Source of the DNA: a virus
Length of the DNA stretch: 59,760 bases
Reading direction: 5' to 3' (one strand)
IMG/VR virus record: IMGVR_UViG_3300045135_000357
Location: 1-59,760 of that record
How positions within the stretch are numbered: the first letter of the stretch is position 1; the number at the start of each line of letters is the position of its first letter. The translations under genes were made by a program, and so were the position numbers. This document shows positions 1 through 51,713 of the stretch, in pieces. The notes beneath the pieces were generated by a model. The model searched no databases. It saw nothing but the letters and a program-made list of their open reading frames with translations, and was not told where the DNA came from.

Positions 1-977
1 TTATACTGCGCCTTCAGCTGCGCATCAGTTTCGGCCTCGTTGTATAGCGATCTGATATATAGCGTCATCGCCAATGCCAGATGCAGACGCATCGGGTGTT
101 CCTCGTCGGCAATCACATCACGTGCTAGCTTGTCAGTGAACATATGCTGAATGTCCCAGCGCCCGATTAGTTCGACTTTGTTAACCTCGGCCCACTCGTT
201 CATCTGGTTGCGCATGTCGTTGCGATACGAGTAGTCCCGCACATGCAGCATGGGTGCGATAGCAAACGCCCAGTCACGGAAGGTTTCGATGTGTGGTTTC
301 AGCATAGCTTTGCGTTCTTTATCCACACGCACCTTCGGTGGCACGGGGACGTCGTTACCACCATCGACCCACTTGAACGCGCCGTCCACGAGACGGAATG
401 TAAGTGATGCCTTGTCGTCCTGTGCCATGGCCCACTCGGCGCGCTTCGTGACGTAGTGCGACTTCGGGCTTTGTTTGGCGTCTGCTTGTATCTTGTCATA
501 TAGCGCACGGGGCACGGTGCGGGTCTTGGCGAGGAAGTATGCCTGCCCACCTGCGCTGATGAAGTGCTTGCCGTTGCGGTTGATGAAGCTGAGACCCCAT
601 GGTGTATGACGCCACAGGAACGCGTAGCGCATGTTGTGTTGATACGGACCCCAACCGTTGCGCAGTGTAACTTCTTCTGTTCCGTCACGATACTTGCGCC
701 ACACGATGGGTGCATACTTCTCCATGTCCTTGAGTGTTGGTCGGTATTTCGCATTAAACCAGTGGTAGTGGCCGAAGTGCTCGTCACCCATGTGGTATCC
801 GTCCGACAGGGCGTAGCAGTAGTCGCTGATCTTGACGATGCGCTCATACTTGCGCTTGCGGTCGCCGATGGGGCGGATGTCCTTGCCCTTGTTAGCTGCG
901 CCGCCGAGCGGCTTGATGTTGTTATAGTATGCTTCGACTTCTGCGAAGTTGCTAAACGATGTAAATGTACGTGCCAT
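1..977 (-). CDS. Conserved-looking phage protein, C-terminus cut by window edge
   Basis: Reading leftward from ATG 977-975, at least 325 codons stay open to the left edge, so the C-terminus lies outside the window. The start follows a good ribosome binding site (AGGAGCTAAG just upstream) and begins MARTFTSFSNFAEVEAYYNN. The protein is rich in Tyr, Trp and charged residues and shows no signal peptide, membrane segment or recognisable catalytic motif. One stretch (GDEHFGHYHW, about residues 67-76) is His-rich but I cannot assign it to a family. It is the last visible gene of the leftward early arm, 28 bases after the preceding gene, with a GTTAGTG/CACTAAC palindrome immediately upstream. Function unknown; the coding call itself is secure. 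Confidence 0.8.
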   Translation of the reverse strand, partial: MARTFTSFSNFAEVEAYYNNIKPLGGAANKGKDIRPIGDRKRKYERIVKISDYCYALSDGYHMGDEHFGHYHWFNAKYRPTLKDMEKYAPIVWRKYRDGTEEVTLRNGWGPYQHNMRYAFLWRHTPWGLSFINRNGKHFISAGGQAYFLAKTRTVPRALYDKIQADAKQSPKSHYVTKRAEWAMAQDDKASLTFRLVDGAFKWVDGGNDVPVPPKVRVDKERKAMLKPHIETFRDWAFAIAPMLHVRDYSYRNDMRNQMNEWAEVNKVELIGRWDIQHMFTDKLARDVIADEEHPMRLHLALAMTLYIRSLYNEAETDAQLKAQY

Positions 978-18678: not shown

Positions 18679-18986
18679 CGAACCGTTTTGCGTCTAGCCA
18701 GAAAGCTGCAGGCATCTGCGATGTATGTGGATTCCGTTATCCGCTACGCAGGCTACGCACTACTTACGTTAAGGGTCGCAAAACAAACGTGTTATCCTGC
18801 CCTGAGTGTTGGGACCCGGATCATCCGCAGCTTAGATTGGGTGAGTTTCCGGTTAACGATCCGCAGGCATTGCGCAATCCGCGCCCGGATAGCGGAGAAT
18901 ATGCGCAAAGTCGCGCGCTTATCATCCCTGTACGTCCAGCGGTTGGGACTGGATTTATTGGACAAGTCACGGTAATAACTTCTTAG
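18675..18986 (+). CDS. Zinc-finger protein in the connector region
   Basis: 103 residues; ATGA overlap with the adaptor gene. Two knuckles, CDVCGF (about 15-20) and CPECWD (about 42-47), form a likely four-cysteine zinc site, followed by DPQALRNPRPDSGEY. Small zinc proteins of this layout lie between adaptor genes in several marine podoviruses by my recollection. Its role is not established. Confidence 0.7.
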   Translation: MTNRFASSQKAAGICDVCGFRYPLRRLRTTYVKGRKTNVLSCPECWDPDHPQLRLGEFPVNDPQALRNPRPDSGEYAQSRALIIPVRPAVGTGFIGQVTVITS

Positions 18987-18998
18987 GAGTGATACGAC

Positions 18999-19148
18999 AT
19001 GGCAAACTGTGGTACGAAGAAGATGAAGAGCGGCGGTAAGGTCGCGAATCAGACGAAGAAAGCAAAGAAGCCCTCTAAGAAGGGCGTTAAGGTACGCGGT
19101 ACCGGCGCTGCTACTAAAGGGCTGTATGCACGGGGGCCGATGGCATAA
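18999..19148 (+). CDS. Very small Lys/Gly-rich protein, 49 residues
   Basis: ATG 18999 behind TTAGGAGTGATACGAC, stop TAA 19146-19148. It starts MANCGTKKMKSGGKVANQTK and ends KVRGTGAATKG-LYARGPMA. It shares the GGKV...RGxGAAxKG pattern with the C-terminus of the protein encoded at 17362-17796. Good ribosome site and tight spacing support a real gene. Confidence 0.65.
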   Translation: MANCGTKKMKSGGKVANQTKKAKKPSKKGVKVRGTGAATKGLYARGPMA

Positions 19149-19151
19149 CCC

Positions 19152-19781
19152 ATGGACTACGCTGAGCTGAAGACAAACATCGAGGACATTTGCGAAACGT
19201 CGTTTACCGACGCGCAGCTTGCTATGTTTACTCAGCAGGCGGAGCAAAAAATCTACAACGCAGTGCAAATCCCCGAGCTTCGCAAGAACGTCACGGGGAC
19301 AGCCTCGAATGGGAACAAGTACCTCCAGATGCCGGAGGATTTTCTCTACTCGTACAGCATGGCCGTTGTAGATGGGTCCGGTAACTATTCGTACCTGCTG
19401 AATAAGGACGTAAACTTCATTCGTGAGGCCTATCCGGCCCCAAGTGGAGTGGGGCTACCCAAGCACTACGCGTTTTTTGACGGTAACACGTTTATATTAG
19501 GCCCAACCCCAGACGCAGATTACTCGGTTGAGCTGCACTATGGTTATTACCCAGAGTCTATCGTTACCGCAGGTACGACGTGGCTAGGGGATGAATTTGA
19601 TTCAGCGCTACTTAACGGTGCGTTGGTCGAAGCGATCCGTTTCCTTAAAGGAGAGCAGGATGTGGTGAATATGTACAATCAGATGTACGTACTCGCTATC
19701 GGACTACTCAAGAACCTTGGCGACGGGAAATTGCGTCAGGACATGTATCGTTCTGGCGAAGTTCGAACTGCCGTGAGCTAA
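19152..19781 (+). CDS. Second head-tail adaptor-like protein
   Basis: 209 residues from ATG 19152. Helical start MDYAELKTNIEDICETSFTD, then LPEDF-like LQMPEDFLYSYSMAVV, SYLLNKDVNFIREAYP, HYAFFDGNTFILGPTPDADY and VELHYGYYPESI, and a C-terminal helix. This pattern is typical of the phage adaptor proteins that follow the portal in podoviruses. Probably part of the neck. Confidence 0.7.
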   Translation: MDYAELKTNIEDICETSFTDAQLAMFTQQAEQKIYNAVQIPELRKNVTGTASNGNKYLQMPEDFLYSYSMAVVDGSGNYSYLLNKDVNFIREAYPAPSGVGLPKHYAFFDGNTFILGPTPDADYSVELHYGYYPESIVTAGTTWLGDEFDSALLNGALVEAIRFLKGEQDVVNMYNQMYVLAIGLLKNLGDGKLRQDMYRSGEVRTAVS

Positions 19782-33602: not shown

Positions 33603-36600
33603 ATGCCACCACTTGTAGCAGCAGCCATAGGATATGGTGCAGGTGCCATCGCCGTATCTGCGGGCGCAACAGTTGGCGCGGCGGTAGTCGTCGGTGCGGG
33701 TACCGCAATCCTAGCGCATGAATCCGGCGCAGCGGACTGGGTTTTCGACAACATAGTTGAGCCGATAGGTGAGGGTATACAGGACGTACTAACATCTGAC
33801 GTTGGTCGGGGCCTCCTTAAAGCAGCCGCTGCAATTACCCCGGGTATGCAGTGGGCTATCCCGCTCATTGACGCCGCAGGTGCTCTTGCAGAGGGTGGTA
33901 ATATCGGGGACGCGCTGAAAGCCGCCGCGGTTTCCTATGTTGGTGGTAAACTTGGTAGTGCTATTGGCGAGTACGCTGGGCAAGTTGCTGTCGAAGCTAC
34001 AGGTTCGCAGGTCGTGGGGCAGATCGTCGGGGGCGGCGCAGGGAGAGCGACCGTTGCCCTTGTTATGGGGCAAGACCCCGTAGAGGCATTCCTCCAAGGT
34101 GGGTTAAGTGCAGGGCTTAGCGCTGCCGCTGGCTGGATCGAGCAGCAGGGCATCGAATCCGGTGCGGGTCAGACGTGGTCTAACCTGCCGGACGCTGCAC
34201 AGAACGTCATCACGGCGTCGCTTAGCGCTGCGTTGTCTGGGGAAGACATAACTGAAGAGCTTATCTGGAACGCCGTTCTGTCTTCGGAGGTAGTATCTAA
34301 AACGGTTAGCGGGTTCCTAGAGAACAATACCGGGCTCAATGATGGTCAGATAGCTGCGCTGACTATGGGTATCCAGCGTACCGCCGCAGTTGCGTTTAGT
34401 GGTGGGGACGTATCGCAGGAAATCCTTAACCAGATCGACAACTACGCAAACAATGCGTTTACTGAGTGGTTTGACAATACCGAGGCTGGTATTGCGGTTA
34501 ACACCACCATGGACAAGATCACCGGGGACTACCAGCGGGTAGCCGCCCAAACTGAAGCCATGGATGCGAAAGGTGCTGAATACAACGAGGCGTTTGCGGC
34601 ATACGAAGCTACGGTAACGGCTATCAACGAGGGTGTGGCTAAGAGTACCGAACTGCAAACCGCATACGAACGGGCACTCCAAAACTTCCAAGCGAACGAA
34701 TCGCAAGAGAACGCAGACGCGCTATCGGCAGCACTCGATGCGTATAACGAACACAATACCGCCTTTAACGAGCGGTACGAGAACACGCTGAAACCGAACC
34801 TAGACTATTACGAGGGGCGGATACCCGAGATCGAAGCTGAGTTCGCCGAGCTATCGGATGAGTACGGTGCGCTCGTGGCTGATCTGACGATAACCACAGA
34901 GCAGCTCGGCGATGAGCTAACTCCGCTGTACGGAGAACTGGATCGTACATTCGTGCAGTTTATGAACCCTGACTTTGACGAAGAGGTGTATCGGCAGGTT
35001 GCTGGGCTAGACGCCGATGAGGATGCTTATCTGCACTGGCTAACCACTGGTAAGGAGCAGGGGCTACCTACGAACGCCGCTGACGCCAAGCAGGCGTACA
35101 ACACCAAGTTCACCCAAATCCTCCAGACGACGCTCGAACGTAACGGGCTGACTCTAGGCGACATAAGTAAGACGCAGTTCGACGCGTTTGTAGCGGGTAT
35201 TAGCGAGCAGTACCCAGACTACAAATCTATCGACATGGCACCGCAGTACGAGATCGCCGATCAGTTCGCGGAAGACTACGCTCTGTTCCTGCGGATGCAG
35301 CAGGCGTCGCGGGACGAGGCAGCGGATATACAAACAGTTCTTGATGACTGGGCATACCTGCAGGGAAACGAGGAGGAGCAAGCAGAGTTACGCGCACAGG
35401 CTGGTGCGATACAGGATATTATCGATAGCTACCAAATTGCAAAAGACGACCCGCCCACGACCCCTGCGGCGGAAGGCGAGATCGAGACCTTGCAAACCCT
35501 GTTTGCGGCTTACGATTACGCAAAGGCAAACGACCTATCGTTCTTTGGAGACATTACCCCCGAAATCGTTGAACTCTTAGCGCTTGTCGGTGTCGACGAC
35601 GCTCTTGTGGGGGAGCCCCTAACTGATTCGGACCTTACTGCGCTGCGCTATAGGCTGAGCCAGCTTACCGGGGGCGTAATCACCGACACCATGACGCGCG
35701 CCTTATCCGCGGCCGGTGTCGATGGCTTTATGGAGGGGGAGTCCCTAATTGATTCGGACATTGCTACCCTACAGGGCAGCTTGGACCGGCTTGATGCGGG
35801 TGTAATTACCCCAGAGATCGCTGAACTTCTACGTAATGTAGTAGGTATCGACGACTTCTTCGTCGGGGAAAATCTATCACCGGATGATATTGACGCACTG
35901 CAAAACAGGGTGATCGCACTTACCCAAGTCGCAGATTTAAATGATGTAACTTTCGAAGATGCAGGCGTATCCGATGTAAACATTGGGAGTGGTATAGCGC
36001 GCGCCACTTACGATCCTGAATCTGGGCTGTGGGACTGGGACGAAATAGGCTTAAGCACGGGGTTCTGGTCCCCGGAACTAGGCCGCATGGTGCGGCAATT
36101 TGAATACTATAAATCCGAAGGCGAACCGACGGGGGACTTTATCCAAGGAGAGGGTCTCCCACCCGGAGTGGGTATCACGCCGGGCCTCACGCTCACCGAC
36201 GAGAAGGTGTATTATTACCAAGACGCTATCACTGGTGAGTGGATTACGAAGCCAGCCGCTGACGGTGTTAGTATTTCTTTCGGAACTGGCTCGGCGTACC
36301 AATTTGACACCCCCTTACAAGGTGTGCTTGAGACGACGGGCGTCGGGCAAACACTTGCTGACCTGAGAGAAACTGCACCGGTAGCGTTCATCGAAGAGAC
36401 CGCTAAACTCTCGGCTGACGGTGCCGCAGCTATCGCAGGCATCGTTGGCGACGCAGTAGTTGACTTCTCACGTAATGTTGTCGAGTACGCCGATAACAGC
36501 GACACCGCCGTAGGCGATGGGTTCCTTAACGGTGCTGGTCTTGTCCTAGAGGCAGGCGGCGAGTTGCTTGAGACGTTTAACAACATGTTGTTACTGGCCA

Positions 36601-39600
36601 ACATTAACCCGGCCAGCACTCCTCTAGGCGCATTTGCGCGTGATATGGTCGAGCTAGGTGGCGACACCAAAACGGTAGAGTGGCAAGAAGCTGTTACTCG
36701 AATGAACGACCGCATGTCGGAAGGTGAGGGTTGGGGTAAAGTCGCGGCAGTTTGGGGTGGGTTCCAAGAAGCCCCGGTGCAGTTTGTTGCTGAGATCATA
36801 GGTAAAGAAATCCTGCAGGAGATTCCAATTCTTCTCGCAAGCGGGGGTACGGGTAATATTACGAAGCGGTTGTTGTCTGAGGCAGGCGAACAAACTGCAC
36901 AGGTGATAGCACAGCGCGCGGCTCTTGGTACGGGCGCGGCTCTCGATCTCGCCGAATCCTTCGGCGGCGCAGCTGGTTCGGCGTATGACTCTGCGTACGC
37001 TACGGCACTTCAGTCGGGTATGTCTGAGACCGAAGCTGAATCCTACGCCCGTGACCTTGCTGTGTCGGCGGGCATGATCGGTGCGACCACGACACTTATT
37101 AGCATGGGTGTTATGGATGGTAACGCGTTCGAAAAAGCTATCTTTGCGCGGGATGATAGCGGTGTAACCGCACAGGCATTCGATTGGCTTACCCAGCGTG
37201 TAGCTGAAGGGGCCGAGGTGTCGTGGAAAGAAGGGGTACAGGAATCCATTGAGGAGGGCCTGCCGACTCTCTTCTCTGAGACAGTGCTTACCCAGCTGGA
37301 CCCGGGACGGGATGTGCTCGGCGCTGTCGCACAGGCAGCAACTCTTGGTGCAATCGCTGGGTCCGGTACGGCGGGCGGTATTTACACTGGGGACGCAATC
37401 GCAGACGCACTGATCCGCATGAATCCACAAGTTCGTACGGCTATTGTGAACGGTGGCTCCGACCCAGAAGGTGTCAAGCAGGCGCTCGCAGACCTCGGTA
37501 TTGACGATGCGCTCGTTGAAGCTGGGGTCGACCCGACGCTCGTGCAGAACAACCTACTCAGTGTAGTAAACAGCGATTACCACAGCACGGGTGACATCTC
37601 CCGTGCGTTCTCTGCGCATCCTGACTTTGTAGTTGGTAACGCTGACATCCTTAACGGGGTGTTGAACTCCGTAGGACAAGACGTCACCACGTATGTGAAC
37701 ACATATGTCGATCAGCGCTACGTCGATATCGACGAGGTAAAGGCTGCTGCCGCTGCAGAAGGCGTCACGCTCACCGACGAGCAAGCCGCGGCTATGGTCA
37801 CTCAGACGACTGACCCCGAGGCTACCCAAGGTGTACTGTATTCGATCCAGCAGACATACGATCCGCAGGCGGTAACCGAGCAAGAAGCACGAGACGCGTT
37901 TGCGGCTCAAGGGTTTAACCCCTCTGACGAGCAAGTGCAGCAGTTTGTTGCGGAAGGCGACGAAACTACGCTGCTTGACGAGCTGTCCCAATACGTTGAC
38001 GCTAACCAAGTCACGGAAGCAGAAGCCCGGCAGTACTTCGCAGATATTGGGTATGATCCAACCGATGAGGAAGTTGCGCAGTTCGTGGGCCAGCAGGCCG
38101 AGGACGAAGCACAGCAGGCAGTCGCTGACTATGTAGACCCCCGTACTGTCGACGCCGAGGAAGTGCTCGCCGCGTACCAAACACTGGGGCTCACACGCCC
38201 AACAGATGCCGATATTCAGGAGCTGGTAGGCCAGTACATGGAGACCGAGCTCGCAGGGCGTGCAGAAGAATACCTGCCGACTGCGCGGTATAACGCGATC
38301 CTTGCCGCTATAGACAACTTTACTGGTGAAGTCGGTGTATCTGACGAAGTGCAGGCCGCACTAGATGTTGTCAAAGCTGACATCATGGAGTCTTTCGGTG
38401 AGCTTGGCCAAGAAGTCGTTGCAATCGACGAGGCTACGCAAAACCTCGAAGCCATAATCGGCAGCATCGCATCTGGCGAAGAAGAAGCCTCTGGCTTGTA
38501 TGCCTATATCGACGACGCGATTGCGACATTGACCGCCGCTGGACTGACCAGTGACGAAGTAGACGCTGCGATCTCTGATATCGTCGGTGCACCCGCGACG
38601 ACCGATGCAGATGGAAACGAAGTTGCTGCCACAGGTATCTACGCGACACTTGCGGAGCTGGGCACGACCGTCGATAACCTCAGCGACCTGAGTACCGAGG
38701 ATATTAAAGGTATTGTCGCAGATGCAGTCGGCGATCTGAACAACCTCAGCACCGAAGATGTGCGGGCCATTGTAACTAACGCGCTGAGCGGCTTTGAGAA
38801 CCTTAGCGAAGAAGACGTACAAACTGTTGTCGGCGATATCATCGGCGCACCTGCAACAACCGATGCAGATGGAAACGAAGTTGCTGCCACAGGTATCTAC
38901 GCAACTATTGAAGGCGCGGTTGGCGATCTGAACAACCTCAGCGCCGCAGACGTACAAGGTATTGTGTCCGAGGCACTGAGCGGCCTTGAAGACAGTATTG
39001 GGATCGACGTACAAGGTGTTGTCGACGATATCGTCGGTGCGCCTGCAACAACTGATGCGGACGGAAACGAAGTTGCTGCTACAGGTATCTACGCAACTAT
39101 CGAAGATGCAGTCGGCAACCTGAACAACCTCAGCACTGAAGACGTACAAGGCATCGTGTCAGATGCACTAAGCGGCTTCGATACCCTAAGCGAAGAAGAC
39201 GTTACGTCTATCGTCGACGGCATTGTCAGTGACCTAAATAATCTAGGTACCACTGACGTTGAGACGATTGTAGCTGACGCGCTGAGTGGTCTTGAGAACC
39301 TTAGCACAGCTGACGTACAAGCTGTTGTCGGTGATATTGTCGGTACCCCTGCTACCGAAGGTGTGGAGTCGACGGGTGTTTACGCGGTTATTGATAACCT
39401 CAACAACCTCAGCGAAACCGATGTAGACAGTATCGTTAACGCGATTGTCGGTACCCCTGCAACCGAAGACGCCGAGGCTACTGGCCTGTATGCTACAATC
39501 GGCGACCTTAACAACATCAGTGAAGAAGATGTTACGGCTATCGTAACTGACGCGCTGAGTGGGCTTGAGAGCCTTAGCGCAGACGACGTTGCATCGGTCG

Positions 39601-41336
39601 TTAATGGCATCATCGGTGCGCCCGCAACAACAGATGCGGATGGAAACGAAGTCGCTGCTACTGGCCTGTACGACTACATCGACGACGGGCTATCCTCCGT
39701 ACAGAAGTCTGTCCTTGATACACTGAGCGAATACGAAACTGCGGGTATCGCGCGTGACGACGCACTGGAACTAGCAATTAGCGACGTCGCTACTGATCTA
39801 GGTGTCACAGAAGAAAATATCCTTAACCGGATCGGTACCGCTGCAACGGAAGACACTCAGGCGACAGGCATATACGCCGCGCTAGAGAGCAACACCGCTG
39901 ACATCCTAGATATACTTGGCACCCCTGCGACAGAGGACGCGGCGGGCACTGGGATTTACGGATATATCGACACCGCAATCGGTGCCATTGGTGAAGACGT
40001 AACTTCGCTGATCGACACTGTGGGCACCCCCTCGATTGCCGACGATCCAACTACGGAAGGCGTAGACGAGAGCCAAGCCGCTACAGGCATATTTGCAGAC
40101 TTAGAGTCCCTGCAGGATAGCGGACTGACTCGTGACCAAGCAATCGAACAACTGGCATCTGACCTTGGCGTAGCACAGTCGGAGCTAGCATCCGCTATCG
40201 GCGACGTAGAAGCCACGTTGCAAGGAGATATCACGGAGCTCGGGGAGCTTATCGGTACTCCTGCAATCGCCGACGATCCAACTACGGAAGGCGTAGACGA
40301 GAGCCAAGCCGCTACAGGCGTATTCGCGGACCTAGAAGCTCTGCAGGATAGTGGGCTGACTCGTGACCAAGCAATCGAACAACTGGCATCTGACCTTGGC
40401 GTAGCACAGGCGGAGCTAGAGTCCGCTATTGCTAATATCGACGTCACTGAGCAAATCACGGACGTGCTTGGTACTACGTTAGGTACCCCCTCGATTGCCG
40501 ACGATCCAACTACGGAAGGCGTAGACGAGAGCCAAGCCGCTACAGGTATATTTGCAGAGCTAGAAGCACTGCAGGAAAGCGGGCTGACGCGTGACCAAGC
40601 GATTTCCGAACTTGCCGCTGCTACGGGTACGAACTTCGATACGCTAAACGATGCACTGCTTTCTACGCAGGAAGACCTGACAGCGCAGATCGGTGACTTG
40701 CAGCTCGATACGCAGGCCGAACTCGACGCTATCGCCGAGCTTATCGGCAAACCCGCACGGGATGTTACACAGGTTGACATCGACTTTGTCGCAGACCTGA
40801 TTGCCCAGCAGGAAGCCATTGCAGAACTCACAGCTGAGCAGCTGCAGTATGACGTGAACCAAGACAACGTAGTTGACCAAGCCGACTACGATCTCCTCCT
40901 GCAGGCTATGGAAGACCCGACCTTCCAGTTTGAGGGAGACACCGTATTCGGCCCGGCTACTGGCTTGTATGCGCAACAGGAACAAGACCTGCAGACTATT
41001 CTGGATACTATTGAGGCTAGTACGCAGGCACAAATTGATGCGCAAACTCAAACTCAGACAGAGCTCTCCACTCAACTACAGACGCAGCTCCAAACACAGT
41101 CGGAAGAGCAGCGACGCCGTGATTTTGGGGACTACCTCCTTCGGCAGGACGATCTGTATGGGCAACGCGTTGACGTTAAAACACCTGATCCAATGCGGAT
41201 TAACTATATGTACGACTGGCAGAGCATATTTGCTACGCCTCAACAGGCCTCACTATTCCCCAGCCCCTATGCAGAGGGTGGACAAGTGGAGGACACAACT
41301 GATAAGTTGTTAAGGATACTAGGAGAAACACGATGA
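33603..41336 (+). CDS. Giant virion protein (2577 residues) with tandem repeats and dockerin-like loop
   Basis: ATG directly follows the previous stop, with TTGGAGATTG as ribosome site. The first 40 residues are hydrophobic and Gly/Ala-rich (IAVSAGATVGAAVVVGAG), like a membrane-inserting ejection protein. A large helical body follows, with further Gly/Ala zippers and a long coiled coil near 270-410. Residues about 1660-2320 hold eleven or so copies of a unit built around (I/V)G(T/A)PAT ... ATG(I/L)(Y/F), many joined to LNNLS-x-EDVQxIVxDALSG. At about 2416-2433 lies DVNQDNVVDQADYDLLL, a calcium-loop (dockerin or EF-hand) motif. The C-terminus has a YAEGG element. Probably a giant internal virion or ejection protein, or a tail component. 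Confidence 0.75.
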   Translation: MPPLVAAAIGYGAGAIAVSAGATVGAAVVVGAGTAILAHESGAADWVFDNIVEPIGEGIQDVLTSDVGRGLLKAAAAITPGMQWAIPLIDAAGALAEGGNIGDALKAAAVSYVGGKLGSAIGEYAGQVAVEATGSQVVGQIVGGGAGRATVALVMGQDPVEAFLQGGLSAGLSAAAGWIEQQGIESGAGQTWSNLPDAAQNVITASLSAALSGEDITEELIWNAVLSSEVVSKTVSGFLENNTGLNDGQIAALTMGIQRTAAVAFSGGDVSQEILNQIDNYANNAFTEWFDNTEAGIAVNTTMDKITGDYQRVAAQTEAMDAKGAEYNEAFAAYEATVTAINEGVAKSTELQTAYERALQNFQANESQENADALSAALDAYNEHNTAFNERYENTLKPNLDYYEGRIPEIEAEFAELSDEYGALVADLTITTEQLGDELTPLYGELDRTFVQFMNPDFDEEVYRQVAGLDADEDAYLHWLTTGKEQGLPTNAADAKQAYNTKFTQILQTTLERNGLTLGDISKTQFDAFVAGISEQYPDYKSIDMAPQYEIADQFAEDYALFLRMQQASRDEAADIQTVLDDWAYLQGNEEEQAELRAQAGAIQDIIDSYQIAKDDPPTTPAAEGEIETLQTLFAAYDYAKANDLSFFGDITPEIVELLALVGVDDALVGEPLTDSDLTALRYRLSQLTGGVITDTMTRALSAAGVDGFMEGESLIDSDIATLQGSLDRLDAGVITPEIAELLRNVVGIDDFFVGENLSPDDIDALQNRVIALTQVADLNDVTFEDAGVSDVNIGSGIARATYDPESGLWDWDEIGLSTGFWSPELGRMVRQFEYYKSEGEPTGDFIQGEGLPPGVGITPGLTLTDEKVYYYQDAITGEWITKPAADGVSISFGTGSAYQFDTPLQGVLETTGVGQTLADLRETAPVAFIEETAKLSADGAAAIAGIVGDAVVDFSRNVVEYADNSDTAVGDGFLNGAGLVLEAGGELLETFNNMLLLANINPASTPLGAFARDMVELGGDTKTVEWQEAVTRMNDRMSEGEGWGKVAAVWGGFQEAPVQFVAEIIGKEILQEIPILLASGGTGNITKRLLSEAGEQTAQVIAQRAALGTGAALDLAESFGGAAGSAYDSAYATALQSGMSETEAESYARDLAVSAGMIGATTTLISMGVMDGNAFEKAIFARDDSGVTAQAFDWLTQRVAEGAEVSWKEGVQESIEEGLPTLFSETVLTQLDPGRDVLGAVAQAATLGAIAGSGTAGGIYTGDAIADALIRMNPQVRTAIVNGGSDPEGVKQALADLGIDDALVEAGVDPTLVQNNLLSVVNSDYHSTGDISRAFSAHPDFVVGNADILNGVLNSVGQDVTTYVNTYVDQRYVDIDEVKAAAAAEGVTLTDEQAAAMVTQTTDPEATQGVLYSIQQTYDPQAVTEQEARDAFAAQGFNPSDEQVQQFVAEGDETTLLDELSQYVDANQVTEAEARQYFADIGYDPTDEEVAQFVGQQAEDEAQQAVADYVDPRTVDAEEVLAAYQTLGLTRPTDADIQELVGQYMETELAGRAEEYLPTARYNAILAAIDNFTGEVGVSDEVQAALDVVKADIMESFGELGQEVVAIDEATQNLEAIIGSIASGEEEASGLYAYIDDAIATLTAAGLTSDEVDAAISDIVGAPATTDADGNEVAATGIYATLAELGTTVDNLSDLSTEDIKGIVADAVGDLNNLSTEDVRAIVTNALSGFENLSEEDVQTVVGDIIGAPATTDADGNEVAATGIYATIEGAVGDLNNLSAADVQGIVSEALSGLEDSIGIDVQGVVDDIVGAPATTDADGNEVAATGIYATIEDAVGNLNNLSTEDVQGIVSDALSGFDTLSEEDVTSIVDGIVSDLNNLGTTDVETIVADALSGLENLSTADVQAVVGDIVGTPATEGVESTGVYAVIDNLNNLSETDVDSIVNAIVGTPATEDAEATGLYATIGDLNNISEEDVTAIVTDALSGLESLSADDVASVVNGIIGAPATTDADGNEVAATGLYDYIDDGLSSVQKSVLDTLSEYETAGIARDDALELAISDVATDLGVTEENILNRIGTAATEDTQATGIYAALESNTADILDILGTPATEDAAGTGIYGYIDTAIGAIGEDVTSLIDTVGTPSIADDPTTEGVDESQAATGIFADLESLQDSGLTRDQAIEQLASDLGVAQSELASAIGDVEATLQGDITELGELIGTPAIADDPTTEGVDESQAATGVFADLEALQDSGLTRDQAIEQLASDLGVAQAELESAIANIDVTEQITDVLGTTLGTPSIADDPTTEGVDESQAATGIFAELEALQESGLTRDQAISELAAATGTNFDTLNDALLSTQEDLTAQIGDLQLDTQAELDAIAELIGKPARDVTQVDIDFVADLIAQQEAIAELTAEQLQYDVNQDNVVDQADYDLLLQAMEDPTFQFEGDTVFGPATGLYAQQEQDLQTILDTIEASTQAQIDAQTQTQTELSTQLQTQLQTQSEEQRRRDFGDYLLRQDDLYGQRVDVKTPDPMRINYMYDWQSIFATPQQASLFPSPYAEGGQVEDTTDKLLRILGETR
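38580..40560 (+). repeat. Coding tandem-repeat region of the giant protein
   Basis: The repeated unit encodes (I/V)G(T/A)PAT...ATG(I/L/V)(Y/F). Three copies with GAPATTDADGNEVAATG are near identical at DNA level early in the array. Three longer copies with IADDPTTEGVDESQAATG occur at about 40030, 40262 and 40494. Unit length varies from about 35 to 80 residues. Confidence 0.75.
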
Positions 41337-44855: not shown

Positions 44856-47800
44856 ATGGCGAAGTATACTCTGGCACTGAAAGACGGGTCGTCAATTCAG
44901 GTCGAGGCCCCGGATAACGCCTCAGATGCGGAAATCTTACAACGGGCGAATCGGCAGCTTTCGGTGCAGAGTCTGCGCCAACGCCGTGAGGGGCGTGAGG
45001 CTGAGCGGCAAGCGCGACTTGCCGAACTTGAGGCAATGCGCCCTGCGGCTCCTGAAGAAGAGTCGGGCTTCCTTGGCGACCTAGCTGGTGGTTTTGCCTC
45101 TGGTGTCGTCGGTCTCGGCGAAATGGGTGCACTCGGTGCGGCTACCATGCTCGACGAAGAGGCAGAACTTGCTGCCCGCGAGCGTATTCAGGGCCTTGCA
45201 GACACGCTGACCCCGAGCATGGGAGATGAGGGAGACCTCACCTACAAGGTCGGCCAAGCCTTCGGTTCTATCGCAGGTGCAATCGGTGTCGGTGCCGCCG
45301 CTACATATGGCGCTGCCGCTGCAGGTGTTGGTGCTGTCGGCGCAGGTCTCGCGGGTCTTCTCGGTGCAGGGACTATTGGTGTTGCCGCTGGTGCTGGTGA
45401 AGCAAGCGAGCGTGCCCGTGAGTACGGCGCTACCGAAGCAGAACGTAATCGCGCCGCCCGTATTGGCGCTGCGATTGGCTCGACAGAAGCACTTCCGCTT
45501 GGCCGTGTTTTCGGTCCTATTGCCAACCGCCTTGTCCGTGACCTCGGCGAAGAAGCTGTTCAAACTATTGGTGGCCGTATCACACGTGCCGCACGCACTG
45601 GCGGCGAAGAAGCCGCACAGGAAGCTGCAGCCAATATTATGCAGAACCTCAACGAGCGTGGGTATAACGCCGAGCAGGCCATCCTAGAAGGTGCTGGTGA
45701 AGCCGGTGCTATCGGTGGCGGAGCAGGTGCGGCTGTACAAATTCTCGTAGATACTTTTGTGGGTCGTCGCGCACCCGGGACTACTGCGCCCGCTGAAGCG
45801 CCCCAAGCCGAGCCCCTCGGCCTACCGGCACCAGAAGGTATCGCAGGGCTAATCCCCGACCAACGTGCAAGCCAAGCACGGGCGATCATTGGGCAGGTTC
45901 TCGACGAACGCGGTGGCGTATCTCTCGAAGAGATGCAGGGTATTGTGCAGCAAACGCAAATCCCCCTGCCCCAGCTTGAGCGGGTTGTCGCTGAAGAAAT
46001 GGAAAAGCGCGGTGCAGCTATGGCTGGACGCGCACAGGGTGAGATGGAAGCCGAAGCTGCCGCACCCTCACTTGAGCCCCGTGTTACTCCGCGTATGGAA
46101 CAGGCAGTCGCCGATGCTCGTGCCGGACGTAGCGCGGTACAAGCTGACAGCGCACGACGTGAACAAGAAGTTCAGGCAGCAGCCCGTGAGCGTGAAGCCT
46201 TACGTGCAGCAGGGCGTGGAGACGAAGCCGCGTTTGAGCAGCCTGACTTGTTTGCCCTACAGCTGGAGCAAGAGCGCCGCCGCCTCGGCCCGGAAGAACT
46301 GCGTCGGCCTGACCAGTATATGGATGTCCCAGAAGACGCAGAGGTTATTACACCTGAAGAACCTGCCGCCATGGGCGACCTCGTCGAGATGGCAGATCAG
46401 CGTCAACGCGCAGCACGGGAAGATGCCGAAATCGCTGACCAGCTGGCCGCTATTGAAGCGGAGAGCCAAGCGACGCGCGCTGCATCGGACCTTGAGACCA
46501 TCACAGGTCAGCAGGAAACACAGCGTCAGCAAGCTACCGAGCAGGGTCGGCGCAAAATCCTACAAGACGTCATCGAGAAGACACCGAGCCGCAACTACAA
46601 CCGTGTGTCTCGCGTGTTCGAGGATGCGCTTGCTAAGGCTGGATACAAGGGAGACCGCGCCAAGGCTACGGAAGCCGAAGTACAGTCGATCCAACGTGCG
46701 GTAAACTTCCAACGCGCCGAGCGCCCTGCGCCGGAAGTAAACCGCGCCGAGCCTGTAAAGCTGCCGCCAGAGGCGACACAGCTGCAGAGTATGGAAGCAC
46801 GCATTCCCGAGGCGGGAACTCGCCGTACAGAAGGCCAGCCCTCCCTGCCGGGACTTGGTAGGAAACAGAATCTCGGACAGGCACCTGCACGTCCAGCTGA
46901 GCCGCAAGCTACACCCAACGTCGTCACCGACGCCATGCTTGATGAGATGGGCATCGCACCCAAATCGGCGGTACGTCAACGCCTACGTGGAAAAGACCTG
47001 AATGACCCTACAACGCGTCAGATTCTTACTTCTTTCGCAAACAAGCCTCGCACTCCTAAAACTGCAGAGTTGGGTATTAGCCGCACTCTTGCGGGAGTAC
47101 CCGCAGCTCAACCCGACCTGTTTGCGCCCCGTGGAGCGCGTCGAGCCCCCCAAACAGAAGCAGCTCCTAGCCCCGTACCTGCAAGCGGCGTTACTCCTCA
47201 GCAGAACGCAGCGCAGCAGCTTGAACTATTCCCTGAAACCGAGAAAGGGGTTGCCGATGTCACTCCAACACCTGTCGCAGGACGAGATAGAACAAGCCCT
47301 CCGCGTGGTGGACGCGGCGTGGCAGTCCCCGGAGGGGTCGGAGGTCGAGGTGCGGGTACCCGAGCACCTGCAGCACCTAAGCGCCGAGGACTGGGAGCAA
47401 GTGTCGCGGATACTGTTCCTACTGCAAAACCAGCAGCGGCTAAGCGCCCTGCACTAAAACCAGCAGAACCGGCAGGGCAAAAACGTCCGGTGCTACCTGT
47501 CCTTGAGGTAGGTAAGCGTCGTACCGAGGCGTTGGCTCCGAAGCCCAAGCCAAAGGCAACCAGCCGCACTGGAGAGACTAAGGCATCCGTCGAGGCTAAA
47601 CTGCTGGACGCATACGATGCGAACACGAGCGCTGACCACAAGCGTTTTGTTAAGGCTATGAAGGTCGAACCAATCAACGACCCGATGACCATTGAGGACA
47701 AGAGCTCTGTACTGAAAGTTCTCAACACGAAGTCTAGCAAAGCGCTGAAGACCACCGTCGGTGCGATCAAGAAATACCTCGGTGCATATGAAGACCCAAT

Positions 47801-50800
47801 CCAAGGTCTGCAGGATGCTATCGATGACGTCGTTTCGCAGACTCCAAACTTCCGCAGTGAAGCCGACACGACTGCGTCGGAGAAAGCCTTCTTCGGATCA
47901 GACAACAAAAACTACCTGCCAGCGCGTGGTAAGAACTCCGCACAAGCGGTGTTAGACTGGGCTGCTGATAACATGTCTGCCGCCACTAAGCGGTGGATGG
48001 CCATAACCATGCGCGATGCCAAGGCAAACAACACCGGTATCGAAGCATTCCAGTCTACAGACCTCGTGGCTAAACGTCGTGAGCTCGAAAAGCTGTTCAA
48101 AGACGGGTTCGACCCCAACGTAGATGCAGATGCAAAAGCGCTAGAAAAACTCATGCAGAAACTTGGCATCGACGAGTCCGATCCGATGCTGCTGAGCATG
48201 ATGTACCGGGGTAGCCTGTTCAGCCTGCAGGCATCGCCCGATGTGGCCCCGCTCACATCCGTGGTTAAAAACATGCTGCGTGGTGGTGACCTTGCTGGTG
48301 CCCTTCGGGTTGTCTCGGCTACGAGCACTGACCCAGAGGTTTCGGCGGTAGCCGCTAAGCTGGCCAAGATGGTTGGCGACACCAAAGTAAAAGTAGGCAA
48401 GTCACTTGAGGCCGGTGCCCTCGGCAAGTTCTCCAGCGCTGACAACACAATTAGCCTGCTCGACGGGTCGGGGCTTAACGTCGAAACACTCCTGCACGAG
48501 ATGACTCACGCCGCGACGGTTGCAACGCTGGCCAACAAGGGCCACCCGCTGACCCGTAAACTGCAGAAAATCTTTGATGAAGCTCGGGAGTACCTGCCGA
48601 CTGCGTACGGTTCGACTACGCTTGAAGAGTTCGTCGCTGAGGCGTTCTCCAACCCGCAGTTCCAGACACAGCTTGCTGGCCTGAAGATCAAGGGCGAGCC
48701 GCTGACGCCGTTCGCTAAGTTCAAGGCAGCGATCTCCAACTTCCTGCGCAGCTTGATCGGCAAGCCTGTGAAGCCTGTGGAGTCCGCACTGGAGCAAACC
48801 ACGAGCCTGATCGACAACATCCTTGCACCTGCACCGGATAACCTCGGCACTGGTGAGTTCTTCATGCTATCGCCCCGCGCCGCTGGTAAGCGCGTCGCCG
48901 ATATGCTCGACGGGGTACAGCAGAACATCAAACCCACCACCAAGAAGTTCCGTCAGGACTTCTCCGATCAGGCGATTGAGTTCCTTCGGGGCACAGGCAA
49001 AGACAAGGCGAAGCGCGCTATGCTCGGCCTATTGCCTTCTCAGGCTGTGGCTGACGTCGCCGACCGCGCAGGCATCACCGGTGCAATGGACCTGCACGTG
49101 ATGATGGAAGAACAGCGCGGTGCGATTAACAAGGCCGACCAAGAAGTCGAAGGTGTGCTAGAGTCCGTGTCTAAGTGGGTGAAGGCTCACAAAGACCAAG
49201 TCGATGCGTTGAACCGCGTCGTCTACAAGAGCACCATAGAGCAGGTTGACCCCACCAAGCCTGTTTCGGCGTATGCCAATGACCCTGAAAAGGCCAAAGC
49301 ATGGAAGGCCATGCGGAACGACTGGCGCGCGCTGTCGTCTACGGGCGGCGATAAAATCTATGCGCAGATGCGCGATACGTACAAGAAGCAGTACGAGCGT
49401 ATGCGGGACGTCATCTACGGCAAGATCGACGAGACCATCACCGATGAAGCTGCGCGCAAGAAGCTGAAGAACGAGGTGTACGCGCGCCTGTTCGAGACCG
49501 GCACCATCGAGCCGTACTTCCCGCTGACACGTTCTGGTAATTACTGGCTGTCCTATGTCGCCGACGGTGAGTTCACTGTCGAGGCGTTCGAGACCCTTGC
49601 TGCACGTGACCGTGCTATCGCAGACCTCAAGGCAGACAAATCGGTCAAGGATGTCGAGAAGTTCGTCAATGTCAGCAACGCTAACTTCTCTAAGGCACCG
49701 CCGAGTTCGTTCGTCGGCCAGACCCTGCAGACCCTGCAGGCGAACAAGGTACCTCAAGAGGTACAGGCCGAGATCATGCGCATGTTCGTGGAGGCGCTGC
49801 CGGAAACGTCGTTCGCCAAGTCGCTCCAGCGGCGTAAGGGCACTGCGGGTTACCAAGAAGATGCGATCCATGCACTCAAGACCAAGGCCTTCGACCTTGC
49901 TCGCCAAGTTGAGCGTCTGCGGTACAGCGCAAAAATCCGTGATCTACAGGATCGTATTCAGGAAGAGAACGCCACTCGACTTACTGACGAGAACAAGTTC
50001 ATCGTTGATGAACTACAGCAGCGCGCGGACTTCGCACGTACGCCGCCGAAGGATGGACTGGCGCAAGCTGCTAACCGTGCAGCGTTTGTGTTTACTATTG
50101 GCTTCAACGCATCGTCTGCGCTGGTCAACCTCTCGCAAGTACCGATGTTCGTGTACCCAATGCTTGGCGGTAAGTACGGCTATGGCGCTACGGGTCGGGC
50201 GATCAAGAACGCATCTAAGCTCGTCACTAGCAGTGGTTTCGACCGCAAAAGCGCCATGGTTGCTCCGTATGGTAATGAGGCCAATATCAAGGTCAACGCC
50301 ATGCCCAGCGTTGATAACTACTTCGAGCTGGATGCCAACGGTGACTACGTAATCCGCAAGGACCTCGAACTTGATGAGGATATGCGCCGCGTTGTTGATG
50401 AACTGAAGCCTTTGGTGCAGATGATGGCGGAGCGCGGACAGCTGAACCGCTCCTTGTTTGCCGATAACCTCGGCGTTGACAGCTCAGGACGTGATCGTAG
50501 CATCACGGACACTGTGGCAGCGGCGTCGGCCTTTATGTTCCACAACGTCGAAGTTTATAACCGTCAGGTCACCGCAATCACTGCGTATCAGCTTGAACTG
50601 GATCGCTTGAAGCAGGCGGAGCCAAGCCTGTCTACTGCAGAGCGTCAGCAGAAAGCCGCAGAAACTGCGCTGTACAACACCCAGATGACCAACGGCGGGT
50701 CGGTGCTTGAAACCGCACCTCGCCTCGGCCAGAAGGGTATTGGTCGGGTCGCCATGATGTACAAGACGTACGGCGTACAGATGTACTACTCCATGTTCAA

Positions 50801-51713
50801 GACCGTCCGAGACGGGATTGAAGCGCACTATGCTGGTGACAAAGCATCACGCAACATCGCAATGAAGCAGATCGCCGGGGTAATGGGTGCATCGTTTGTG
50901 TTGGCCGGTGTCGTGGGTATGCCGCTTGCACGTGAGATCATGCAGCTGCTTGACCTGTTCTTCTTTGACGAAGAGGAAGACGACGTCGAGACCGTCGTGC
51001 GTAAGGCTATCGGGGAAGGGTTCTACAAGGGGCCGCTCACTGCACTGCTCGGCGTTGACTTGTCCAGCCGTATCGGCCTGTCGGGCCTCATCCTGCAGGC
51101 CAACCGGTATAACCACGATGCGTCGCTCGAAGAGGATGTATTCCACTATCTCGGTGGCCCTGCATGGAGCGTTGTATCCTCGTACAATCGCGGGTTCAAA
51201 GACATCATGTCCGGCAACATGGAGCGTGGCGTTGAAACCATGCTGCCAGCCGGTGTTCGCAACGCGTACCAAGCAGCGTTCCGCTTCCCGCGTGACGAGG
51301 GCATCCTCACACGTCGCGGTGACCCGATTATGGACGACTTGTCCTTCGGTGAACTTGCAGCCAAGTTTATTGGTTTTGCCCCAGCGGAGTACACCCGCAC
51401 TCAGGAGATGACCCAGCAGGGCAAGCGGATCGACGTTGCGGTAAACACTAAACGTACTGCCCTACTGCGTCGTTACTATGTGGCGCAGCGCATGGGGGAC
51501 TACAGTGAGAGCCGCCAGATTATGAAGCGCATCCAAGAGTTCAACCGCCGCCACCCCACTGCACGGATCGATGCGGATTCGTTCCGACGCTCTATGCGAC
51601 AGCATATGGAGACCTCGGCCCGCATGTATAACGGGGTGTCTATCAGCCCGAACATGCGTCAGGCTATCCAAGAGAGCGACCAAGAATGGAACCAAGGTTG
51701 GCAGCTCTTCTAA
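44856..51713 (+). CDS. Giant polyvalent-type virion protein (2285 residues) with zinc metallopeptidase motif
   Basis: N-terminal beta-grasp-like module (KYTLALKDGSSIQVEAPDN, 1-35) is followed by a Gly/Ala membrane-type region (about 130-185, IGVGAAATYGAAAAGVGAVG). Then come long helical stretches and a Pro/Gly/Arg-rich disordered linker (about 690-910). A zincin motif lies at 1214-1218 (HEMTH, in LLHEMTHAATVATL), with a possible third ligand in TTLEEFVAEAF near 1256. The C-terminal 500 residues (GFNASSALVNLSQVPMFVYP; hydrophobic IAGVMGASFVLAGVVGMP) resemble the large polyvalent-protein domains of phages. It is probably ejected into the host. A second gene is nested in its linker (47257-47457). 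Confidence 0.8.
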   Translation: MAKYTLALKDGSSIQVEAPDNASDAEILQRANRQLSVQSLRQRREGREAERQARLAELEAMRPAAPEEESGFLGDLAGGFASGVVGLGEMGALGAATMLDEEAELAARERIQGLADTLTPSMGDEGDLTYKVGQAFGSIAGAIGVGAAATYGAAAAGVGAVGAGLAGLLGAGTIGVAAGAGEASERAREYGATEAERNRAARIGAAIGSTEALPLGRVFGPIANRLVRDLGEEAVQTIGGRITRAARTGGEEAAQEAAANIMQNLNERGYNAEQAILEGAGEAGAIGGGAGAAVQILVDTFVGRRAPGTTAPAEAPQAEPLGLPAPEGIAGLIPDQRASQARAIIGQVLDERGGVSLEEMQGIVQQTQIPLPQLERVVAEEMEKRGAAMAGRAQGEMEAEAAAPSLEPRVTPRMEQAVADARAGRSAVQADSARREQEVQAAAREREALRAAGRGDEAAFEQPDLFALQLEQERRRLGPEELRRPDQYMDVPEDAEVITPEEPAAMGDLVEMADQRQRAAREDAEIADQLAAIEAESQATRAASDLETITGQQETQRQQATEQGRRKILQDVIEKTPSRNYNRVSRVFEDALAKAGYKGDRAKATEAEVQSIQRAVNFQRAERPAPEVNRAEPVKLPPEATQLQSMEARIPEAGTRRTEGQPSLPGLGRKQNLGQAPARPAEPQATPNVVTDAMLDEMGIAPKSAVRQRLRGKDLNDPTTRQILTSFANKPRTPKTAELGISRTLAGVPAAQPDLFAPRGARRAPQTEAAPSPVPASGVTPQQNAAQQLELFPETEKGVADVTPTPVAGRDRTSPPRGGRGVAVPGGVGGRGAGTRAPAAPKRRGLGASVADTVPTAKPAAAKRPALKPAEPAGQKRPVLPVLEVGKRRTEALAPKPKPKATSRTGETKASVEAKLLDAYDANTSADHKRFVKAMKVEPINDPMTIEDKSSVLKVLNTKSSKALKTTVGAIKKYLGAYEDPIQGLQDAIDDVVSQTPNFRSEADTTASEKAFFGSDNKNYLPARGKNSAQAVLDWAADNMSAATKRWMAITMRDAKANNTGIEAFQSTDLVAKRRELEKLFKDGFDPNVDADAKALEKLMQKLGIDESDPMLLSMMYRGSLFSLQASPDVAPLTSVVKNMLRGGDLAGALRVVSATSTDPEVSAVAAKLAKMVGDTKVKVGKSLEAGALGKFSSADNTISLLDGSGLNVETLLHEMTHAATVATLANKGHPLTRKLQKIFDEAREYLPTAYGSTTLEEFVAEAFSNPQFQTQLAGLKIKGEPLTPFAKFKAAISNFLRSLIGKPVKPVESALEQTTSLIDNILAPAPDNLGTGEFFMLSPRAAGKRVADMLDGVQQNIKPTTKKFRQDFSDQAIEFLRGTGKDKAKRAMLGLLPSQAVADVADRAGITGAMDLHVMMEEQRGAINKADQEVEGVLESVSKWVKAHKDQVDALNRVVYKSTIEQVDPTKPVSAYANDPEKAKAWKAMRNDWRALSSTGGDKIYAQMRDTYKKQYERMRDVIYGKIDETITDEAARKKLKNEVYARLFETGTIEPYFPLTRSGNYWLSYVADGEFTVEAFETLAARDRAIADLKADKSVKDVEKFVNVSNANFSKAPPSSFVGQTLQTLQANKVPQEVQAEIMRMFVEALPETSFAKSLQRRKGTAGYQEDAIHALKTKAFDLARQVERLRYSAKIRDLQDRIQEENATRLTDENKFIVDELQQRADFARTPPKDGLAQAANRAAFVFTIGFNASSALVNLSQVPMFVYPMLGGKYGYGATGRAIKNASKLVTSSGFDRKSAMVAPYGNEANIKVNAMPSVDNYFELDANGDYVIRKDLELDEDMRRVVDELKPLVQMMAERGQLNRSLFADNLGVDSSGRDRSITDTVAAASAFMFHNVEVYNRQVTAITAYQLELDRLKQAEPSLSTAERQQKAAETALYNTQMTNGGSVLETAPRLGQKGIGRVAMMYKTYGVQMYYSMFKTVRDGIEAHYAGDKASRNIAMKQIAGVMGASFVLAGVVGMPLAREIMQLLDLFFFDEEEDDVETVVRKAIGEGFYKGPLTALLGVDLSSRIGLSGLILQANRYNHDASLEEDVFHYLGGPAWSVVSSYNRGFKDIMSGNMERGVETMLPAGVRNAYQAAFRFPRDEGILTRRGDPIMDDLSFGELAAKFIGFAPAEYTRTQEMTQQGKRIDVAVNTKRTALLRRYYVAQRMGDYSESRQIMKRIQEFNRRHPTARIDADSFRRSMRQHMETSARMYNGVSISPNMRQAIQESDQEWNQGWQLF
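47257..47457 (+). CDS. Nested gene in another frame of the 2285-residue gene
   Basis: 66 residues, ATG 47257, stop TAA 47455-47457. The ribosome site GAGAAAGGGG lies 7 bases upstream. The product is a well-formed two-part helical protein: MSLQHLSQDEIEQALRVVDA, then VPEHLQHLSAEDWEQVSR, ILFLLQNQQRLSALH. Composition is that of a normal soluble protein, whereas the host frame here encodes a low-complexity Pro/Gly/Arg linker. Similar VP-x-HLQHL-x-x-x-(D/E)W proteins exist, from memory, as stand-alone phage hypotheticals. Function unknown. Confidence 0.7.
   Translation: MSLQHLSQDEIEQALRVVDAAWQSPEGSEVEVRVPEHLQHLSAEDWEQVSRILFLLQNQQRLSALH

What the first reader, a model, noticed from the sequence alone, without database searches (positions are those of the whole stretch)
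47257..47457. Real-looking gene nested out of frame inside the 2285-residue protein gene
The 66-codon frame has a strong ribosome site (AAAGGGG, 7 bases) and encodes a balanced amphipathic protein with VPEHLQHLSAEDWEQVSR. In the host frame the same DNA encodes a disordered Pro/Gly/Arg linker, a region free to accommodate a second gene. Stand-alone phage proteins with the same VP-x-x-L-x-HL-x-x-x-(D/E)W pattern exist by my recollection, which would make this a gene captured in, or born from, another gene.
Basis: partly seen in the sequence, partly recalled or inferred. Interest (0 to 1): 0.76.

Follow-up and report, generated by a model that had tools for sequence, protein, structure and literature searches.

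The report
Hidden gene nested in giant phage gene
Inside one very large virus gene, read one base out of step, lies a second small gene that is conserved in the same place in about a hundred other environmental phages; no copy turned up in the annotated phage collection and no protein family library searched contains it.

Summary
The 66-codon ORF (47257-47457, AAAGGGG then 6 nt then ATG) lies in the +1 frame inside the 2285-codon PLxRFG/LPD39/DarB-like gene (44856-51713). Homologous ORFs occupy the same place and the same relative frame in 107 other IMG/VR contigs, down to about 25% identity. No stand-alone copy was found. Inside these 66 codons the substitution pattern inverts: host third codon positions are the most variable elsewhere in the gene and the least variable here, with sharp edges at the ORF's ends. 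A Shine-Dalgarno match at the N-terminal boundary is present in 76/81 distinct sequences versus 30% of control intervals. Two contigs whose giant proteins are only 28% identical share, within that gene, just this ORF plus its ribosome site at 90% DNA identity. AlphaFold gives a confident helical hairpin (pLDDT 86). Pfam, PHROGs, NCBIfam, PADLOC and PDB give no convincing match. Most likely it is an overprinted gene, translated by internal initiation, encoding a small helical protein. Its role is inferred only: probably acting in trans on a conserved phage or bacterial target. The 'captured stand-alone gene' idea is not supported.

The parts
47257..47457 (+). Nested gene, 66 codons plus TAA, +1 frame relative to the giant gene; predicted two-helix hairpin protein with conserved P35, L38, L41, W46 and C-terminal H66
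   Evidence: alignments; codon-position inversion; structure
47244..47250 (+). Shine-Dalgarno-like AAAGGGG, 6 nt before the ATG; an SD-like match is present in 76/81 distinct homologues
44856..51713 (+). Giant host gene, 2285 aa: PLxRFG-domain (NF032893, E 2.6e-109), LPD39 (PF18858, E 1.4e-13), DarB-like (phrog_10089, E 1.4e-64); HExxH peptidase-like motif in the conserved segment encoded at 48249-48842
47241..47471 (+). Region where the codon-position substitution signal is inverted; host frame encodes a variable Pro/Gly/Arg linker

Best explanation
A genuine overprinted protein-coding gene. SHOWN: a 58-82 residue protein family is encoded in the +1 frame inside a giant PLxRFG/LPD39 polyvalent-protein gene of many environmental tailed phages, under stronger protein-level constraint than the giant gene's own frame over those codons, with its own conserved ribosome-binding site, start and stop. 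INFERRED: ribosomes initiate internally on the giant gene's mRNA (which follows an ejection-type gene, so probably late), yielding a soluble helical-hairpin protein. INFERRED, weaker: the protein works in trans on a target shared between phages (a virion assembly/ejection partner or a bacterial host factor), not on a fast-evolving part of the giant protein, because it stays 94% identical between two phages whose giant proteins are 28% identical. Likelihoods: about 0.96 that it is a real protein-coding gene, 0.85 that it is made by internal initiation, 0.4 for the trans-acting role. The confidence field is for the gene plus internal initiation.
For: Homologues nested in the same place: 67-71% identity in four contigs; all relatives of the host gene covering the region, with one half-copy in L015; 23 then more contigs; 64 of 69 testable relatives picked by the HOST protein, all 64 in the same frame; 46 of 46 from another branch of the family, all nested. 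Codon positions, window vs L002/L005/L012: host pos3 share of substitutions 0.19-0.20 inside vs 0.57-0.61 elsewhere, p 5e-8 to 5e-10; L013/L016 [19,7,0] inside vs [68,40,224], p 1.5e-12; eight further groups p 9e-4 to 1e-24. The signal switches at the ORF ends, and among plausible genes of the window it is the strongest. SD: score >=15 in 45/81 vs 47/2922 controls, p 2e-51. L031 vs L032/L034: within the giant gene only the ORF plus about 20 nt upstream and 4 nt downstream aligns, at 88-90%. AlphaFold pLDDT 85.9, pTM 0.69.
Against: No expression data exist here. Five of 69 testable host genes lack it (L110 retains a stop-broken tail; L121, L131, L148 and L158 have none) and L015 keeps only the C-terminal half, so it is dispensable in some phages. 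Twelve named phages with about 25% identical giant proteins lack it. The role is not shown by any homology or fold match.
Confidence: 0.85

Rival explanations
1. Cis partner (a rival on the role, not on the gene): the small protein is a dedicated chaperone, escort or inhibitor of the giant polyvalent protein, made from the same mRNA so that the two are co-produced.
For: Found only inside this gene in every confirmed homologue, one per genome; the giant protein carries a peptidase-like HExxH motif and follows an ejection-type gene.
Against: L031 and L032/L034 keep the nested protein 94% identical although their giant proteins are 28% identical. Strict linkage would also follow simply from an overprinted gene being unable to move out. 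A few giant genes do without it.
Confidence: 0.3
2. Programmed +1 frameshift: ribosomes shift from the host frame into the nested frame, making a truncated giant protein with the hairpin as C-terminal tail, rather than a free small protein.
For: The frame upstream is open in several contigs, including the window (47002-47457).
Against: In L011 and L123 an in-frame stop lies immediately or a few codons before the start. An SD-like match at the right distance from a start codon sits at the conserved N-terminus in 76/81. Conservation begins at the start codon. A shared slippery motif was not specifically searched for.
Confidence: 0.07
3. A conserved RNA or DNA element (regulatory structure, packaging site) explains the low host third-position variability.
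For: Constraint at host third positions alone would be compatible with a nucleic-acid element.
Against: Host first positions (nested third positions) are free to change inside the ORF, and the protein motif persists while DNA identity is lost. Edges coincide with start and stop. The protein folds confidently in prediction.
Confidence: 0.03
4. Captured stand-alone gene: an independent phage gene was inserted into the giant gene out of frame.
Against: No stand-alone homologue in 50,697 phage records, in PHROGs, or among the IMG/VR hits, all of which are nested.
Confidence: 0.07

Closest known systems
Overprinted fully nested phage genes such as lambda Rz1 inside Rz, or phiX174 E inside D (from own knowledge); an annotated rz/rz1 pair is visible in Erwinia phage PEp14
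   Same: A short gene in another frame wholly inside a longer one, with its own ribosome site, both frames retained in relatives
   Different: Here the container is a roughly 2000-2500 codon polyvalent/PLxRFG gene and the nested protein is a predicted soluble helical hairpin, not a lipoprotein or membrane lysis protein; the family matches no library searched
PLxRFG / LPD39 / DarB-like polyvalent proteins (PMC5512222)
   Same: The giant host gene belongs here by NCBIfam, Pfam and PHROGs
   Different: The paper's text has no occurrence of 'overlapping', 'out of frame' or 'small protein', and 12 named phages with such genes lack the nested ORF

Membership tests
Overprinted (nested, different-frame) genes | Second frame under protein-level selection in relatives | tested here: met
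   Host pos3 becomes the least variable position only inside the ORF; identity far above synonymous-shuffle null
Overprinted (nested, different-frame) genes | Own translation-initiation signals conserved | tested here: met
   76/81 with SD-like match versus 877/2922 control intervals, p 7e-33
Overprinted (nested, different-frame) genes | Both frames remain open and coding across relatives | tested here: met
   Host frame open across the nested ORF in 62 of 64 loci, the other 2 being contig ends, and in all 46 loci
Overprinted (nested, different-frame) genes | Product is made in infected cells | not testable with these tools
   Needs ribosome profiling or mass spectrometry
PLxRFG/LPD39 polyvalent protein (giant host gene) | Match above curated score cut-off | tested here: met
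   NF032893 366.6 bits vs cut-off 100; PF18858 51.4 vs 27
Any known small phage protein family (PHROGs, Pfam, NCBIfam, PADLOC) | Significant and consistent profile match of the nested protein | tested here: not met
   PHROGs, 47 members: nine families, each matched by one member, best E 0.0039; Pfam best E 0.02 below cut-off; NCBIfam best 0.09, well below cut-off; PADLOC best 0.0075 in one member
Known protein folds of the PDB | Clear structural match | tested here: inconclusive
   Foldseek best E 3.7; VIA-align best Z 4.6 for a simple helical arrangement

The most novel reading that the evidence does not exclude
A protein family, unrecognised in the libraries searched, that exists only as an out-of-frame passenger of a giant phage gene across a broad phage group, is conserved more tightly than its container, and survives as an intact unit when the container's surrounding sequence is replaced; it would be a trans-acting assembly, ejection or host-takeover factor.
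Probability: 0.45. Interest if true: 0.82.

Novelty: new member of a known kind. Interest (0 to 1): 0.72.

Why it matters
Standard annotation usually drops genes wholly inside others. This one is a clear case in dsDNA phages, present in 64 of 69 testable relatives of its container and missing from Pfam, PHROGs, NCBIfam and PADLOC. It shows that out-of-frame coding can be broad and old in large phage genes, supplies a ready natural test set (the same gene kept, decayed or absent in relatives), and makes the question of what small proteins hide in giant polyvalent genes directly testable.

Tried and rejected
Stand-alone homologues: nine tblastn queries with family members from several branches and one with a made-up consensus against 50,697 phage records gave only chance matches. 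Single-member PHROG hits (20406, 17850, 10757, 5219, 38546) point to different families and were treated as chance. The Lachnospiraceae hit L044 is a false positive: 521-aa own frame, E 0.14 with the profile. Structure libraries PDB and BFVD gave nothing with E below 0.8. An over-diverse alignment could not be used for scanning. Low third-position scores at 18795-19268 and 302-847 (minus strand) most likely come from spurious antisense ORFs chosen by the greedy ORF picker, not new nested genes. Relatives by taxonomy cannot be drawn for a virus record.

Full report
WHAT WAS CHECKED. The window is a 59,760-base virus record from IMG/VR. The ORF at 47257-47457 is present as described: ATG, 66 codons, TAA, with AAAGGGG at 47244-47250. 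It lies within the 2285-codon gene 44856-51713, whose codons start two bases after the nested codons, so the nested frame is +1 relative to the host frame. The same frame is open from 47002, but only the part from 47257 is conserved.

WHAT THE CONTAINER IS. The giant protein matches NCBIfam NF032893 'PLxRFG domain-containing protein' (E 2.6e-109), Pfam LPD39 'large polyvalent protein associated domain 39' (E 1.4e-13) and PHROG 10089 'DarB-like antirestriction' (E 1.4e-64), and its relatives share an LLHEMTHAAT peptidase-like motif. It follows, two genes on, a 279-aa ejection-protein-like gene (phrog_4287) and a 2577-codon gene, and so probably sits in the late, virion-associated block. The polyvalent-protein paper proposes that many such phage proteins are packaged and injected (PMC5512222).

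HOMOLOGUES. A scan with the 66-aa protein found four IMG/VR contigs at 67-71% identity, each with the ORF nested at the same place. Searching instead with the HOST protein downstream of the nested ORF gave ten contigs; those covering the region also carry it, though host and nested sequences had diverged, with one (L015) keeping only the C-terminal half. A profile of nine members found 23 viral contigs, down to 33% identity, all nested; a further subset added more. A host-anchored scan with the peptidase-like segment found at least 466 relatives and kept 80; of 69 with enough upstream sequence 64 carry the nested family, and all 64 are in the same relative frame. A scan from another branch of the family gave 46 loci, all nested in the same frame of a very long ORF. 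By my count of the contig list this is 107 contigs besides the window. Searching by the host gene avoids the bias of searching for the motif itself.

SELECTION. If the nested frame encodes a selected protein, the usual pattern (host third position most variable) should invert inside it, and it does. Window versus L002, L005 and L012: third-position share 0.19-0.20 inside, 0.57-0.61 in the rest of the gene (Fisher p 5e-8, 5e-10 and 2e-9). L013 versus L016: [19,7,0] inside versus [68,40,224] outside (p 1.5e-12). Eight other groups repeat it with p from 9e-4 to 1e-24. A sliding view of eight genomes shows the switch at about 47257 and the return at about 47457. Scanning the window's genes against two related genomes, the only comparable signals come from ORFs on the minus strand at 302-847 and 18795-19268 that look like wrongly chosen antisense frames. 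Synonymous shuffling of the host codons gives nested identities of 0.20-0.24 (maximum 0.42) where the observed are 0.64-0.80. These pairwise p values treat sites as independent and groups share ancestry, so they are guides rather than exact probabilities.

START SIGNALS. Within the interval where the N-terminus must lie, 76 of 81 distinct homologues have an SD-like match upstream of an ATG/GTG/TTG, against 30% of control intervals in the same genes and frame (p 7e-33); at a stricter score 45/81 against 1.6%. Examples: AAGGAGGTGCCG-ATG in L013, AAGGAGGTAACAAGTG-ATG in L042. In L011 and L123 a stop lies directly or a few codons upstream, so the product cannot be a long fusion read in this frame there.

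A UNIT. L031 and L032 share about 80% DNA identity in the DNA after the giant gene, but inside the giant gene only 229 bases align: the nested ORF, 21 nt before it (SD included) and 4 nt after it, at 90%. Their giant proteins are 28% identical over the conserved part, while the nested proteins are 94% identical. L031 versus L034 is the same, and a few other pairs are similar at lower identity. So the nested gene is kept, or exchanged, independently of the giant gene's own sequence. I take this as evidence that its target is not a rapidly evolving part of the giant protein; this is inference.

STRUCTURE. With 24 and then 47 homologues AlphaFold gives two helices (8-23, 43-62/65), pLDDT 84-86, pTM 0.68-0.69. 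No convincing PDB or BFVD match. The most conserved positions are L6, A14, P35, L38, L41, W46, L53, L56 and the C-terminal H66.

LOSS AND ORIGIN. Five of 69 testable host genes lack it; one (L110) retains a stop-interrupted tail LLQEEQQAAQLH, read as a decayed copy. Twelve named phages with about 25% identical giant proteins lack it. With no stand-alone relative found, birth by overprinting inside the giant gene of one lineage is the simplest account; the same relative frame in every homologue fits a single origin.

KNOWN OR NEW. Nested overprinted genes are a known kind. This family is in none of the libraries searched, and literature searches returned no description of it, with the limits of the held library. 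LIMITS: no expression data; the role is inferred; all carriers are uncultivated contigs.

Noticed in passing
window encoded residues just upstream of 47257 (QLELFPETEKGV) and in relatives (QPDLFTPRG, QLDLFAPRG): The giant protein carries QLxLF/QxDLF motifs beside the nested gene that resemble sliding-clamp-binding motifs (from memory, untested).
   Followed up: no
L031 (2158-2386) vs L032 (9968-10196): Two phages share 80% identical downstream DNA but have very different giant genes, as if the giant gene had been swapped except for the nested ORF.
   Followed up: partly
L110, about 1 kb upstream of 6001: Remnant of the nested gene tail (LLQEEQQAAQLH followed by stop) after an upstream stop: probably a decayed copy.
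   Followed up: partly
L015 1696-1821: Only the C-terminal half of the nested protein remains in frame; the first half is replaced.
   Followed up: partly
window 18795-19268 and 302-847, minus strand: Long antisense ORFs show low third-position variability in a genome-wide scan, probably because the true genes are on the other strand or frame.
   Followed up: no
window 33603-41336: A 2577-codon gene with no match in PHROGs or NCBIfam, upstream of ejection-type genes.
   Followed up: no
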